5,041 nt of DNA from Candidatus Cloacimonadota bacterium (lineage in GTDB: Bacteria > Cloacimonadota > Cloacimonadia > Cloacimonadales > TCS61), in NCBI GenBank assembly GCA_018654125.1, contig JABIME010000311.1:1-5041 (forward strand). Direction: 5' to 3'. Under the pieces are notes generated by a model. That model ran no database searches. It was not told the origin of the DNA and was given only the letters and a program-made list of their open reading frames with translations. Shown in pieces: positions 1,118 to 5,041 of this stretch. The position numbers were made by a program, and so were the translations under genes. Within the stretch, counting starts at the first letter, position 1. The number at the start of each line of letters is the position of its first letter.

Positions 1118-1975
1118 TTAATAATGAATAACAGTATACTTATTAAAATTAATCCGTTTGAAATCTGTTTCCTCTAATGTGGTATCAGTAATATCATTAC
1201 CATCTTTATCAGTAATAGAGATTAAGTTTTTTCTTCTAAAAACATAAAGAAGCTTGTTCTGATTTTCACCAATGCTTTCAACAAATATGTCTTTCTTTTT
1301 TATCATTCTAAGCACACCGTTACAAGATCTATCTTTTGTTAAATTGAATTTAATATAGTTGGGATTTTCTTCTGCATACGCAAATGATTTATGTTGAGAA
1401 AGACTGTCCGGATGAGGAAGATCTAAAACGATATTACTAAATTCCAGATCAGTGCTAAATCTATTATTGAAATACTCCAAAGCGGCATCCTGATTATCCT
1501 CTACATACAATTCTAAATCTCCATCATTAGTAATTGCATCAAGAATACTAACAAGTAATGCTGGCACCAATCCTACTACGACAACTTTATATTTTGGCCC
1601 TATCCAATTTACTACAATATCTCCAATGTAATAAACGTCATTTGTATTTGAAAGTTGAAATAATGCATCTTCTCGTTGGAATTTATAAGAAAAATTAGTG
1701 TAAGCTATGTTTGAAAAAAACGCTTCGCCAACAGGTAATTTGGTTATTATATAACCTGTAGAATCCGGCTTATAACTAAACTCTCCTGTAGTGAGTTCAT
1801 TAAATAAAATTCTCGATTTAGTAGTAACATCCTCATCATTATATAAAACCTTTAATTTGCCGACGACAATAGCTTCGTTTGGTTCTCTATCTAAAGTTAT
1901 AAGTTGTTTGTTCGAACTACATGCCGAGGTTATTATTATTACTGAGAGTAAAAAGATCTTACTCCATAATTTCAT
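1118..1975 (-). CDS. Predicted lipoprotein of unknown function
   Basis: The protein has 285 residues. A short signal peptide, with MKLWSK and then a hydrophobic core, ends in ITSAC with the candidate lipidated cysteine at residue 19 and a Ser/Asn-rich linker after it. Thr at position -3 departs from the canonical Leu, but the looser lipobox is tolerated in Bacteroidota-type bacteria. Residues 33-125 look like a beta-sandwich: IVVGKLKVLYND, RILFNEL, TGYIITKLPVGEAFF, then DVYYIGDIVVNW. This resembles lipoproteins whose Ig/transthyretin-like domain ends in 'LP.G...' and 'Y.GdI'. A hydrophobic stretch follows at 129-148 (YKVVVVGLVPALLVSILDAI), then a polar C-terminal half of about 135 residues with no motif I recognise. 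A GGGGGA site at 1986-1981 sits 5 nt before the ATG. A sigma-70-like promoter is seen at 2051-2022. The gene is divergent from the repeat lipoprotein and upstream of the small exported protein. Location in a membrane is likely; role unknown. Confidence 0.75.
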   Translation of the reverse strand: MKLWSKIFLLSVIIITSACSSNKQLITLDREPNEAIVVGKLKVLYNDEDVTTKSRILFNELTTGEFSYKPDSTGYIITKLPVGEAFFSNIAYTNFSYKFQREDALFQLSNTNDVYYIGDIVVNWIGPKYKVVVVGLVPALLVSILDAITNDGDLELYVEDNQDAALEYFNNRFSTDLEFSNIVLDLPHPDSLSQHKSFAYAEENPNYIKFNLTKDRSCNGVLRMIKKKDIFVESIGENQNKLLYVFRRKNLISITDKDGNDITDTTLEETDFKRINFNKYTVIHY

Positions 1976-1980
1976 CTAAA

Positions 1981-1986
1981 TCCCCC
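1981..1986 (-). promoter_or_regulatory. Ribosome binding site of the 1118-1975 gene
   Basis: GGGGGA on the minus strand is 5 nt upstream of the ATG at 1975. It is an imperfect Shine-Dalgarno, but it is the only purine-rich G cluster in an AT-rich leader and is correctly spaced, so it supports this start. Confidence 0.55.
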
Positions 1987-2021
1987 AAAAAATATTATTG
2001 TCCATTTACAAATGCTAAATC

Positions 2022-2051
2022 AAAATAGAAAAAAAGTAGAATAAATGTCAA
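2022..2051 (-). promoter_or_regulatory. Putative sigma-70-like promoter for the 1118-1975 gene
   Basis: On the minus strand there is a perfect TTGACA (2051-2046), an 18-bp spacer, then TATTTT (2027-2022), which matches 4 of 6 positions of the TATAAT consensus. Transcription would start near 2015 and leave a leader of about 40 nt containing the GGGGGA site. The call rests on consensus matching in an AT-rich region, and the phylum's promoter consensus may differ. Confidence 0.45.
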
Positions 2052-2095
2052 ATAGAAAAGTCTTTAGTCAATCTCTAAACCTGAGTAAATAGTTT

Positions 2096-2123
2096 TTGCA
2101 AAATAATAAAATAAAGCTATACT
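2096..2123 (+). promoter_or_regulatory. Putative sigma-70-like promoter for the YD-repeat lipoprotein
   Basis: TTGCAA (2096-2101, 4 of 6 to the -35 consensus), a 16-bp spacer, and TATACT (2118-2123, 5 of 6 to the -10 consensus) lie on the plus strand. The inferred start near 2130 gives a leader of about 29 nt ending in the Shine-Dalgarno at 2148. Together with the minus-strand element it makes a divergent promoter region whose two -35 boxes are 44 bp apart. Confidence 0.45.
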
Positions 2124-2147
2124 ATTACAGTCGTTAATAAAATTAAT

Positions 2148-2151
2148 GGAG
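2148..2151 (+). promoter_or_regulatory. Ribosome binding site that fixes the ATG at 2159
   Basis: GGAG followed by four A is 7 nt upstream of the ATG at 2159. This is the best translation start in the region. The in-frame GTG at 2217 that begins the long downstream frame has only a TTTTGA context and no Shine-Dalgarno. The site therefore argues that translation begins in the signal-peptide frame and not at 2217. Confidence 0.7.
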
Positions 2152-2158
2152 AAAATTG

Positions 2159-4064
2159 ATGAGGCGAAACACAAATATTTTAATTGTAGTAGTTGTAATG
2201 ACACTGGTTATTTTGAGTGGTTGTGGTCAAAAAAAAAGATGTTTACTTTACCGATATAGATATACTCTACAGTACATATGAGATTGAAGGATATTACCCA
2301 TATTCAGGTGATGTGAGTAAAGGAAGCTTATATCATTTTTCTTATGATGAAAAAGGTAAATTGATAAGAGTTGAATTTTTGGTGAATGGTGAGCTAAATA
2401 AAAGTTATAAACTGGGAGCTGCACAAATTGTCATTGAATACTCAGATGGTTTTGAAAAAAGAACCTTGCTCGATACAAATGGAGAGCAATCTAACAAAAC
2501 TAGTGGTGTCAGCTTTATCAGGCTCAAACTGGATGAAAATGGTTATCGATCATCACTCTTTCATTATGATTTTGCAGGTGATTTAACGGAAAATTCATCG
2601 GGTGTTTATCAGTATTACTGGACCCTGGATGACCAGGGTCATAGAGTCCAATCGATATGCCTGGATGCTGAAGGAAACCGAATAGAAGATAAAGAAGGTG
2701 TGAGTGAATTTAAGTATGCTTACGATGACAATGGCTATCTAAATGAGATTAGAGGTTATGATGATGAAGGTCAACTTCATGAGCACCCAATTTATACATC
2801 CGCGATAGAACGTTTTAAAAGAGATAAAAATAATAATATACTACAAAAAAGTTACTACGGTGCCGATGAAGAACTTAAATTTATCGATCGTTATAATTAT
2901 GCAATGATTCGTTTTGAATATGATAGTAACGGGAATAAGATAATGATAAGTTATTATGGTGCTGATGAGCAGCCGGTCGAACTTCAGGAGCTAGGGATTA
3001 CCATTATACGCAGTAATTTTGATGAACACAATAACTTAACTGAGGAGAGTTGTTATGGTATTGATGATGAACTTAAATTTATCGATCAATATAATTATGC
3101 GATGATTCGGTATGAATATGATACTAATGGGAATGAGATAATGAGAAGTTATTATGGTGCTGATGAGCAGCCGATCGAACATCGGGAGAATGGATTTGCC
3201 ATTAGACGCAGGAATTATGATGAACACAATAACTTAACTGAAGAGAGTTATTATGGTATTGATGAACAACTTAAAGCTAATAAAATAAACGGTTCATCCA
3301 TCGTAAAAAGGGAATATGACTCTGAGGATAATATATTAGAGGAGAGTTTTTACGGGAGCAATGGTAAATTAAAATTCCTGGAAGTATACGGCTATGCCTT
3401 AGTTCGCTTGAAATATGATGAGAACAACAACAAAATTGAAACAAGAGTTTATGGGAAAGATGAACGCTTGAAAGTTGGTGTAATAGGCTATGCTATTAAC
3501 CGTACAAAATTTGATGAAAATGGTAATAAAATTGAAAGTAGTTATTATAATGAAAATGAAAAGTTAATTGAATATAAAGATAACGGCTATGCTGTGGTTC
3601 GACAAAAATATGATGAGTTTAAGAATATTATAGAAGAAAGTTATTATGGTACTGATGGAAAACTTTATGCTTCAGAAGATCTTGGTTACGCAATAAAGCG
3701 GATGGAGTATGATGAGGTTGGCAATAATATTGAAGAACGCTTTTACGATGTTAATGACCAACGTACATTTGAGGAAGACTCAGATTATTCAATTAGACAA
3801 ATGAAGTATGATGAAAATAAGTATTTAGTTGAAGTTAGATTTTTTAAAGAAGAGGGTAAGTTATCAGATGAATCTTGCATAAAAACTCTTGGACGTGACG
3901 AGAATGGGAATGTTCTTGAAGTGAGATATTATGATGCTGAAGATGTTCTAACCAGATCTGGTTGGGCAATTAAACGAGATACGTATAACGATAATGGTGA
4001 CTTGACAAAGAGTGATTATTATGATCACTCTGATAAATTTCTAGGTTCAAAAGATAACGATTAA
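2159..4064 (+). CDS. YD-type tandem-repeat lipoprotein, with its frame interrupted at an A9 tract
   Basis: Starting at ATG 2159, the first frame encodes MRRN, a hydrophobic core of about 15 residues (ILIVVVVMTLVILSGC) and then GQKK, a canonical lipoprotein signal with lipobox LSGC and Cys22. It meets a stop at 2279-2281 after 40 codons. The remaining 609 codons (from GAT 2238 to TAA 4062-4064) lie in the +1 frame. Removing one A from the run at 2229-2237 joins them as ...CGQKKDVYFTD..., giving 634 residues. The body has at least 12 units of a 33-residue repeat, roughly [YF]D..[GN]N.I.ESYYG.D..L......GYA.[VI]R, with irregular units at both ends. This is like RHS/YD and MORN-type beta repeats but is not a close match to either. 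Family knowledge suggests an extended beta surface structure, perhaps for binding; no catalytic motif is visible. It is a surface or periplasmic lipoprotein by inference. The TAA is doubled (4062-4067) and a strong terminator follows. The frame break may be phase variation, slippage, a real mutation or a sequencing error. Confidence 0.75.
2229..2237 (+). repeat. Homopolymeric A9 tract at the junction of the two frames
   Basis: Nine consecutive A lie directly after the codons for lipobox Cys22 and Gly23 (the run starts inside the Gln24 codon). Eight A would put the signal peptide and repeat domain in one frame; so would eleven. With nine A, translation ends at 2279-2281. Runs of this length are known sites of slipped-strand mutation and of RNA polymerase slippage, and also of sequencing error. 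Confidence 0.9.
2871..3068 (+). repeat. 198-bp direct repeat, copy 1 (two 33-residue units)
   Basis: This segment pairs with 3069-3266 at a constant offset of 198 nt. The encoded 66 residues are identical at about 50 positions. Exact blocks include 27 nt beginning at 2949 and 23 nt beginning at 3021. It is the most similar pair in the array and looks like a later duplication of a two-unit block. Confidence 0.85.
3069..3266 (+). repeat. 198-bp direct repeat, copy 2
   Basis: This is the second copy of the two-unit block at 2871-3068. Its matching exact blocks begin at 3147 and 3219. Many of the differences change the amino acid (for example Arg/Gln, Lys/Glu, Leu/His, Ile/Arg), while the Tyr, Asp, Gly and Asn framework of the repeat is kept. 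Confidence 0.85.
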
Positions 4065-4070
4065 TAACGA

Positions 4071-4109
4071 AAAACAGCTCACCCAAATTTCTTTTGAGTG
4101 AGCTGTTTT
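4071..4109. terminator. Bidirectional rho-independent terminator between convergent genes
   Basis: A perfect 12-bp inverted repeat, AAAACAGCTCAC (4071-4082) and GTGAGCTGTTTT (4098-4109), extends inward past one C/A mismatch by three more pairs to a 5-nt loop at 4088-4092. On the plus strand TTTTGTTTT follows the GC part of the stem. On the minus strand five T follow it. It sits 6 nt after the first stop codon of the repeat lipoprotein and 13 nt from the stop codon of the minus-strand gene, so it should end both transcripts. Confidence 0.9.
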
Positions 4110-4122
4110 GTTTTAAACTACA

Positions 4123-5041
4123 CTATTTTAACAGCAGGCATTTTTTCATTGCTACTGTCTTTCCTGCAACCGTGAGTTTATATAAATAGATTCCAGAACT
4201 CACAGGTTGTTGATATAAATCTGTTCCATTCCAAGTAACTGATCCTTCGATACAATGCTGTGCATCACTCAGGATGACAGTTAACGTTGTAATTTTTTGA
4301 CCTTTCAGATTGTAGATTTCAATCTCAGGGTTCTCCGTGTGCTCTGTGCTCAAATTAAAACTGATAGTAGTTGTTGGATTAAACGGATTAGGATAATTAC
4401 CAATTAGCTCGGCTCTATTAATGATAGTTCCATCTACCCCCGTTCCTATATATTCAAAGTCAACTTGCAATGGGTCAGAACTTCCAAGATCATAAACAGC
4501 TTGAATTACTACGGAATATATTTGTCCATTTACTAAATTTTCAAAAAGCCATTGTGTTTCTGAAGTGTTAAACATTTCAGCATCTAAATAAACATCATAA
4601 CCTATCAAACTTACACCTACTGATGGGATTGGTGGATCCCAACTAGCTAATCCTGAAGAGGGATCTACCGTGAAATTTTGAGGTGGATTTAAAATTGGAG
4701 TTCTTTCTACCACATTAGAAAGTGCGGCATCTGCTTCTATTCCGTTTGTATATTGTGCAACAACAGCATATTGATACATTTCCGGTTCAAGCTGTTCCCA
4801 CTCAGTATCTACATAAACTTCTTCAGTTAAAGAAGTAAGCAATTCCCATTCAAGTGGATTCTGGTTATTGTATTCTGTAAAACGTAAAATGTCATATATT
4901 TCAAATTCTCTTACTGTAGGTGGATCCCAGGTTAATGTAACTTCTGTATTCTCGTCATTTACAACAGCAACTACATTGCTAGCCGGTATCGCATTTTCAT
5001 TCAAAGTTATAGTTCCAAGATCAATATGTTGATTTCCAACA
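4123..5041 (-). CDS. Secreted multidomain protein, C-terminal part: two FN3-like domains and a Por/type IX-like sorting domain (5' end outside the window)
   Basis: The frame is open to the window edge. A TTG at 5004 is not a credible start, because 12 in-frame codons precede it (VGNQHIDLGTIT...) and none is a stop. Of the 305 visible residues, 1-13 look like the end of a carboxypeptidase-regulatory-like beta domain ('IDLGTITL'). Residues 19-115 are one fibronectin-III-like domain (VTLTWDPPT, then YAVVAQYTNGIEA). Residues 116-198 are a second (NFTVDPSSGLASWDPP, then YSVVIQAVYDLGSSDPL). Residues 214-305 are a FlgD-like C-terminal sorting domain with GNYPNPFNPTTTISF, IYNLKGQK, WNGTD, PVSSGIYLYKL and a final MKKCLLLK. 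Such domains direct secretion and surface attachment in FCB bacteria. The catalytic or binding part, if any, lies upstream and is not seen. The IYNLKGQK-WNGTD loop is a few residues longer than I would expect and contains an imperfect palindrome (4237-4282). Confidence 0.85.
   Translation of the reverse strand, partial: VGNQHIDLGTITLNENAIPASNVVAVVNDENTEVTLTWDPPTVREFEIYDILRFTEYNNQNPLEWELLTSLTEEVYVDTEWEQLEPEMYQYAVVAQYTNGIEADAALSNVVERTPILNPPQNFTVDPSSGLASWDPPIPSVGVSLIGYDVYLDAEMFNTSETQWLFENLVNGQIYSVVIQAVYDLGSSDPLQVDFEYIGTGVDGTIINRAELIGNYPNPFNPTTTISFNLSTEHTENPEIEIYNLKGQKITTLTVILSDAQHCIEGSVTWNGTDLYQQPVSSGIYLYKLTVAGKTVAMKKCLLLK
4237..4282 (-). repeat. Imperfect palindrome inside the sorting domain, resembling a dispersed short repeat
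   Basis: The minus strand reads AACTGTCATCCTGAG, then a central ATGC-ACA-GCAT hairpin, then CGAAGGATCAGTT. The outer arms AACTG(TC)ATCCT and AGGATCAGTT pair except for a 2-nt bulge. The half-sites GTCATCCTGAG and CGAAGGATC are the same as those of a short palindromic repeat that I recall as scattered through many environmental bacterial genomes. It is translated in frame as VILSDAQHCIEGSV. Membership in that family is inference from memory and was not tested by a search. Confidence 0.5.

What the first reader, a model, noticed from the sequence alone, without database searches (positions are those of the whole stretch)
2159..2281. A lipoprotein signal is split from its 609-codon body by an A9 tract: candidate phase-variable or slippage-controlled gene
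The frame from ATG 2159 has a good Shine-Dalgarno (GGAG, 7-nt spacing), a hydrophobic core and a perfect LSGC lipobox, then stops at 2279-2281. The repeat domain is open in the +1 frame and has no signal peptide or Shine-Dalgarno of its own. The switch point coincides with a nine-A run placed just after the lipidated cysteine, so one fewer A restores a 634-residue lipoprotein. Such a placement would give an on/off surface lipoprotein by slipped-strand mispairing. It could also allow constant low-level expression by RNA polymerase slippage on A9. A simple homopolymer sequencing error is the main rival, and a fixed loss-of-function mutation is possible, although the 609 codons without a stop argue against long-term decay.
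Basis: partly seen in the sequence, partly recalled or inferred. Interest (0 to 1): 0.75.

Follow-up and report, generated by a model that had tools for sequence, protein, structure and literature searches.

The report
Lipoprotein gene broken at nine-A run
A surface-lipoprotein gene of an uncultured bacterium, probably a Cloacimonadota, has its export signal and its body in different reading frames because of a run of nine As; the likeliest cause is an ordinary slip or reading error in that run, and an evolved on/off switch is possible but not shown.

Summary
A Shine-Dalgarno, start codon, hydrophobic leader and LSGC lipobox (2148-2228) are followed by A9 (2229-2237). After it the leader frame stops at 2281, while a 608-codon body is open in the +1 frame to 4064. 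The pieces are most likely one gene: of 23 relatives matching the body's N-terminus from near its start, 21 have a leader directly before it in the same protein, 17 of them with a strict lipobox. The body is predicted confidently as an RHS/YD-repeat beta structure starting just after the tract, and a terminator follows.

Nothing shows a switch. Usual AAA codons explain most of the tract. Five distant relatives with DNA at this junction are in frame, without an A run there. No second copy of the locus was found, so population tract length is unknown. RNA-polymerase slippage is weak: restoring the frame needs a deletion-type slip (or a two-base insertion), while published poly(A) slippage is mostly single insertion.

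Best reading: a YD-repeat lipoprotein gene, probably of a Cloacimonadota, with a recent, segregating or technical homopolymer frameshift. Phase variation stays open at about 0.13.

The parts
2095..2123 (+). promoter-like site (TTTGCA-17-TATACT) upstream of the leader; weak, consensus match only
   Evidence: 9 of 12 matches; 19 such sites found in 1900-4200 against a mean of 12.6 in shuffles
2148..2151 (+). Shine-Dalgarno GGAG, 7 nt before ATG 2159
   Evidence: sequence read directly
2159..2281 (+). 40-codon leader frame: lipoprotein signal peptide with LSGC lipobox (Cys 2222-2224), then out of frame with the body to a stop at 2279-2281
   Evidence: LptM_cons match of 19.6 bits, below its cut-off of 27.3
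2229..2237 (+). A9 tract where the frame changes
2238..4064 (+). body: RHS/YD-repeat beta protein in the +1 frame, 608 codons and stop
2823..3218 (+). two tandem 198-nt copies (80% identical) inside the body; dN 0.19, dS 0.51 between them
4071..4109 (.). 17-bp stem-loop between the body gene and the facing gene, listed as a terminator for the - strand; by eye also T-rich after it on the + strand
   Evidence: folds at -21.0 kcal/mol as + strand RNA 4065-4125

Best explanation
This is one gene for an exported, lipid-anchored RHS/YD-repeat protein of an uncultured bacterium, most likely of Candidatus Cloacimonadota. Its reading frame is interrupted at the A9 tract just behind the lipidated cysteine. 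The break is a homopolymer length change of ordinary kind: a recent or segregating replication slip, or a sequencing or assembly error in the longest homopolymer of the window. As written, the DNA gives a 40-residue aborted lipopeptide and no exported body. Shown: the anatomy, the leader-body layout of relatives, and the open body. Inferred: that leader and body were one gene here too, that the change is recent or technical, and the taxon (from one neighbour gene).
For: Of 95 body relatives (94, one more), 37 match body residues 7-110 at E <= 0.01 and 23 of these match from within the first 25 positions. Of the 23, 17 have a hydrophobic leader with a strict lipobox, 1 a relaxed lipobox (P0077), 3 a hydrophobic leader without lipobox (P0001, P0002, P0003) and 2 no leader as recorded (P0024, which starts MNGC, perhaps a lipobox with its start cut off; P0032). 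In two close lipoprotein relatives, P0004 and P0009, the conserved Tyr lies 7 residues after the Cys; in P0033 and P0035 the distance is longer. In the window the distance is 22 nt, 7 codons and one base. The AlphaFold2 model is confident (mean pLDDT 88.2) and its first strand starts at residue 7, directly after the tract. No stop in 608 body codons. The two youngest repeat copies have dN/dS of about 0.37. AAA makes 76 of 96 Lys codons and CAA 29 of 42 Gln codons of the window's genes (summed by me), so Gln-Lys-Lys gives a run of about 8 A in roughly 0.43 of cases with no selection for a switch. In 5 of 31 loci the DNA covers this junction; by eye on the printed translations all 5 run from leader to body in one frame, and none has a run of six or more A there.
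Against: No reads and no second copy of the locus were available, so neither an error nor a recent mutation is demonstrated. The other homopolymers inside genes of the window, up to A7, leave their frames open, so there is no sign of a generally error-ridden sequence. The five relatives match family query proteins (not the window) at 30-38% identity, and by eye only one of them (L013) has a lipobox, so they say little about close kin. The dN/dS value covers the time since the duplication, not since the frame break.
Confidence: 0.78

Rival explanations
1. Evolved phase variation: replication slippage in the A tract turns the lipoprotein on and off in different cells.
For: The position is right: the tract lies in the first 4% of the gene, between signal and body. 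Poly(A) tracts of 5 to 9 are more common than expected in the first 10% of prokaryotic genes, and the A tract of inlA changes length at about 5.5e-7 (A6 to A7) and 3.9e-8 (A7 to A6) (PMC2831843, first third of the Results and section 9 read). The protein is predicted to be a lipoprotein, a usual class for phase variation (recalled).
Against: No length variants were seen, because no second copy was found. No A run of six or more at the junction in 5 of 5 distant relatives with DNA. The tract is largely explained by codon usage. The same paper finds tracts over 7 bases generally not over-represented, and those over 8 not significantly nearer gene starts in its rank test. Nothing on variation of this gene family was seen in the listings.
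Confidence: 0.13
2. Transcriptional slippage on A9 yields a fraction of mRNAs in which signal and body are in one frame, so the gene is expressed at low level without any DNA change.
For: Bacterial RNA polymerase slips in vivo with high efficiency on nine As or Ts (PMC5009743, passages). Frameshifted genes rescued this way are reported for Buchnera and Blochmannia (PMC3017870, passages). Of 53 groups of A9/T9 genes with homologues, Baranov et al. found six whose slippage product matches a single-frame homologue, and seven with conserved overlapping frames; 40 showed no sign of use (PMC1088944, Results read). In AT-rich Buchnera, deletion errors in runs do rise with run length (PMC5574713, passages).
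Against: The productive direction here is loss of one base or gain of two. E. coli polymerase gave no deletion-type rescue on the poly(A) runs examined (PMC6260861, section 19; I did not see whether nine As was among them). Transcript insertions dominate in A/T runs and 80% of insertions are single; fewer than 1% of E. coli and 21% of Buchnera transcript deletions start in homopolymers, and that study saw no restored reading frame (PMC5574713, passages). Only a weak hairpin is predicted just upstream (-4.3 kcal/mol).
Confidence: 0.05
3. The body is a separate cytoplasmic gene and the leader ORF is a chance or unrelated small lipopeptide.
For: 29 of the 94 relatives carry a TIR domain and P0032 carries sigma-factor domains and no leader, so the repeat also occurs in proteins of intracellular layout.
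Against: No GTG or TTG start with more than a 3-nt Shine-Dalgarno match, and no ATG, among the 15 body-frame candidates listed to 2700. The four best body hits, P0001-P0004, all carry a leader directly before the same residues. The leader here has a proper Shine-Dalgarno and lipobox at the expected distance.
Confidence: 0.04

Closest known systems
RHS/YD-repeat lipoproteins of uncultured bacteria (Pfam PF05593, TIGR01643; I know of no name for this subgroup)
   Same: leader or lipobox, then the YYR..I..DG.Y.I.G.YP start, then beta repeats; up to 46% identity over the N-terminal part
   Different: the relatives are single proteins; the window has leader and body in different frames
inlA 5' poly(A) tract of Listeria (PMC2831843)
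   Same: length change of an A run near the 5' end truncates a surface protein
   Different: there, strains with both lengths and reversion rates were measured; here only one sequence exists. Different protein and bacterium.
Homopolymer-frameshifted genes thought to be rescued by transcriptional slippage in Buchnera and Blochmannia (PMC3017870), and the A9/T9 genes of PMC1088944
   Same: otherwise open gene broken only at a long A run
   Different: no transcript evidence here, and the needed direction is the rarer one on poly(A)
Phase-variable mycoplasma lipoproteins with poly(A) tracts near the N-terminus (Vaa, P78; recalled, not looked up)
   Same: A tract close to a lipoprotein start
   Different: variation shown there, not here

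Membership tests
RHS/YD-repeat proteins (PF05593 / TIGR01643) | profile match above the curated score | tested here: met
   PF05593 25 bits vs 22; TIGR01643 26.7 vs 15.8; in both no single stretch passes the limit alone, the score is the sum of weak repeats
RHS/YD-repeat proteins (PF05593 / TIGR01643) | beta-repeat fold like solved Rhs shells | tested here: met
   pLDDT 88.2; best Foldseek hits are Rhs shells, E 1.9e-19, but query TM-scores only 0.10-0.30 in the 50 rows listed, so repeat type rather than global shape; PDB profile hit 7q97, E 1.2e-9 (with alignment A1)
RHS toxin or effector | C-terminal toxin domain behind the shell | tested here: not met
   no other Pfam or NCBIfam domain at E <= 0.01; strands run to residue 613 of 615
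Bacterial lipoprotein | n-region, hydrophobic core and lipobox ending in Cys, in one frame with the protein | tested here: not met
   the leader is complete but out of frame with the body in the given sequence; no signal-peptide program was available
Phase-variable gene by slipped-strand mispairing | length variants of the tract in one population, changing expression | not testable with these tools
   no reads; no second copy of the locus found
Phase-variable gene by slipped-strand mispairing | tract kept at the same place in relatives | tested here: inconclusive
   0 of 5 distant relatives with DNA at the junction have an A run of six or more; no close relative was available
Gene expressed by transcriptional slippage | mRNA length variants at the tract | not testable with these tools
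   no transcript data

The most novel reading that the evidence does not exclude
A phase-variable RHS-repeat surface lipoprotein in the Cloacimonadota, switched by replication slippage in an A tract that sits exactly between lipid anchor and repeat shell; it would be a surface on/off system in an uncultured environmental lineage rather than in a pathogen.
Probability: 0.12. Interest if true: 0.5.

Novelty: new member of a known kind. Interest (0 to 1): 0.22.

Why it matters
As it stands it is a useful caution: one homopolymer separates signal from body, so a gene caller would probably annotate a signal-less protein where most N-terminally matching relatives are lipoproteins. If the tract did vary within a population, it would extend contingency switching of surface lipoproteins to an uncultured environmental phylum, and this could be tested in existing metagenome reads.

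Tried and rejected
Looked for a second copy of the locus. Body search in the 5.8-billion protein set: 94 hits, best by E-value 34% identity over 95% of the query, highest identity 39%, none near-identical (only proteins of 0.55 to 1.75 times the query's length are candidates, and 7,993 were scored). First 200 body residues, to catch contig-edge fragments: 2 hits, 26-27%. Genome contigs: 3 distant loci. Viral contigs with the body: 1 distant locus. Viral contigs with the neighbour gene: none. Two DNA patterns around the junction in viral contigs: none. Body against plasmids: none. DNA 1976-2400 against phages: none. The neighbour gene has one near-identical public protein, P0095, on a 2,073-bp contig (284 of 285 residues identical); no DNA of it could be fetched.

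Whole-genome searches reached only the phylum of locus L003 (record title: Bacteroidales), not Cloacimonadota: 21 of 296 genomes (query P0004) and 11 of 395 (query P0075) had matches, most of them to the repeats. One search covered all 31 loci then held; the 13 loci added (L032-L044) were not examined for the junction, and at least two of them (L032, L040) overlap genes already seen.

Rejected: -1 ribosomal frameshifting, because the frame it enters stops within about 10 codons; a body-only start; a known RNA element (no Rfam match at gathering score); a toxin reading (no toxin domain).

Paper searches: phase variation, Cloacimonetes, slippage (140 papers held two of the three terms, the 10 listed were seen, none of the 10 holding the word Cloacimonetes), Cloacimonadota with lipoprotein (4 papers) and YD repeat, lipoprotein, Bacteroidetes (2 papers). 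Titles and abstract beginnings showed nothing on this gene; those papers were not read.

Full report
What is there. The window is AT-rich (35% A, 32% T) and carries five genes, two of them cut by its ends: the end of a methyltransferase-like gene (2-430; best match below the curated cut-off), a 183-aa gene (490-1041, -), a 285-aa lipoprotein-like gene (1118-1975, -), the gene of the finding (2159-4064, +), and a gene with fibronectin type III and a C-terminal sorting domain (4123-5040, -). Of 15 public relatives of the 285-aa protein, one is nearly identical (P0095, 284 of 285 residues). Three are named by organism in the listing: two Candidatus Cloacimonetes (59% and 45% identity) and one Candidatus Marinimicrobia (31%). 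So the source is probably a Cloacimonadota bacterium; this is an inference from one neighbour gene.

GGAG lies 7 nt before ATG 2159. The leader reads MRRNTNILIVVVVMTLVILSGC and continues to a stop at 2279-2281. The A run is nine long, at 2229-2237. The body frame is open from 2217 to 4064, with 608 codons after the tract. Among the 15 body-frame start candidates listed to 2700 there is no ATG, and the GTG and TTG codons have at best a 3-nt Shine-Dalgarno match.

Leader and body are most likely one gene. I searched the body as encoded (94 proteins) and its first 200 residues (2 proteins, one of them new), giving 95 relatives. When body residues 7-110 were compared with all 95, 37 matched at E <= 0.01, and 23 of them from within the first 25 positions; the other 14 were not looked at for leaders. 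Of the 23, 17 have a hydrophobic leader and strict lipobox before the match, 1 a relaxed lipobox, 3 a hydrophobic leader without lipobox, and 2 none as recorded (leader and lipobox judged by a hydropathy window and a pattern of my own plus eye, not by a signal-peptide program). In P0004 and P0009 the conserved Tyr is seven residues after the Cys, with longer linkers in others. In the window it is 22 nt after it, which is seven codons and one base. The frame change can therefore be placed between 2225 and about 2243, and the A9 lies inside that interval.

The body is open and folds in prediction. The AlphaFold2 model from 37 sequences has mean pLDDT 88.2, with strands from residue 7 to residue 613; residues 1-4 and 183-216 are low. 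Foldseek's best solved structures are Rhs shells (E down to 1.9e-19), followed by teneurins and Tc-complex shells, with query TM-scores of 0.10-0.30 in the 50 rows listed, which says repeat type and not the same overall shape. There is no toxin domain. Two tandem 198-nt copies inside the body are 80% identical with dN 0.19 and dS 0.51; the next pair gives dN 0.50 and dS 1.47, and the third pair is saturated. That shows constraint since the duplications; it says nothing about the time since the frame break. A strong stem-loop follows the gene.

Does it look like a switch? Three points speak against needing one. First, Lys is AAA in 76 of 96 cases and Gln CAA in 29 of 42 (summed by me), so a Gln-Lys-Lys linker behind the lipobox often makes a long A run by itself; some relatives also have Lys-rich linkers there, such as P0004, P0077 and P0110. 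Second, of the 31 loci held, 5 contain DNA through the junction (L008, L010, L013, L015, L024). By eye all 5 run from leader to body in one frame and none has a run of six or more A there (L024 has one T6 in its leader). They are distant, and only L013 has a lipobox. Third, the tract is the longest homopolymer of the window, the kind of place where both polymerase slips and sequencing errors concentrate. One point speaks against a generally poor sequence: genes crossing the shorter runs, up to A7, keep open frames.

Direction matters for transcriptional slippage. The body is in the +1 frame, so only loss of one base or gain of two would put both pieces in one frame. In a reporter study E. coli polymerase gave no deletion-type rescue on the poly(A) runs examined (PMC6260861, abstract and section 19 read; I did not see whether nine As was tested). 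In genome-wide data, insertions dominate in A/T runs and 80% of insertions are single; deletions rarely start there, fewer than 1% in E. coli and 21% in Buchnera, although in Buchnera they rise with run length; that study saw no restored frame (PMC5574713, passages). Rescue is thus possible but expected to be weak. Known precedents for the two active readings are inlA (PMC2831843, abstract, first third of the Results and section 9), A9/T9 genes with single-frame homologues (PMC1088944, Results) and Blochmannia (PMC3017870, passages).

What could not be done. No reads, no transcript data and no second copy of the locus were reachable, and the window's genome is not held. The choice between a technical error, a recent or segregating mutation and an evolved switch therefore rests largely on priors. 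I put error or ordinary mutation together at 0.78, phase variation at 0.13, transcriptional slippage at 0.05 and separate genes at 0.04.

Verdict. It is an ordinary homopolymer frameshift in a member of a known repeat family unless reads show otherwise.

Noticed in passing
window 2823-3218: Tandem duplication of a 198-nt double repeat inside the body (80% identical), so the repeat shell has grown. Relatives of 350 to 1,075 residues were found, but the search itself allowed only about 338 to 1,076.
   Followed up: partly
window 1118-1975 (-): 285-aa lipoprotein-like protein with no Pfam or NCBIfam match at E <= 0.01. Of 15 relatives three have an organism name in the listing: two Cloacimonetes, one Marinimicrobia. 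Possibly an unnamed family of these phyla.
   Followed up: partly
29 of the 94 relatives (for example P0005-P0008): They carry a TIR domain (PF13676 or PF08937) on the same protein, so the same beta repeat is used both in exported lipoproteins and in TIR-domain proteins.
   Followed up: no
window 4123-5040 (-): Fibronectin type III protein with a type IX-like C-terminal sorting domain (PF18962), facing the repeat gene across the stem-loop at 4071-4109.
   Followed up: no
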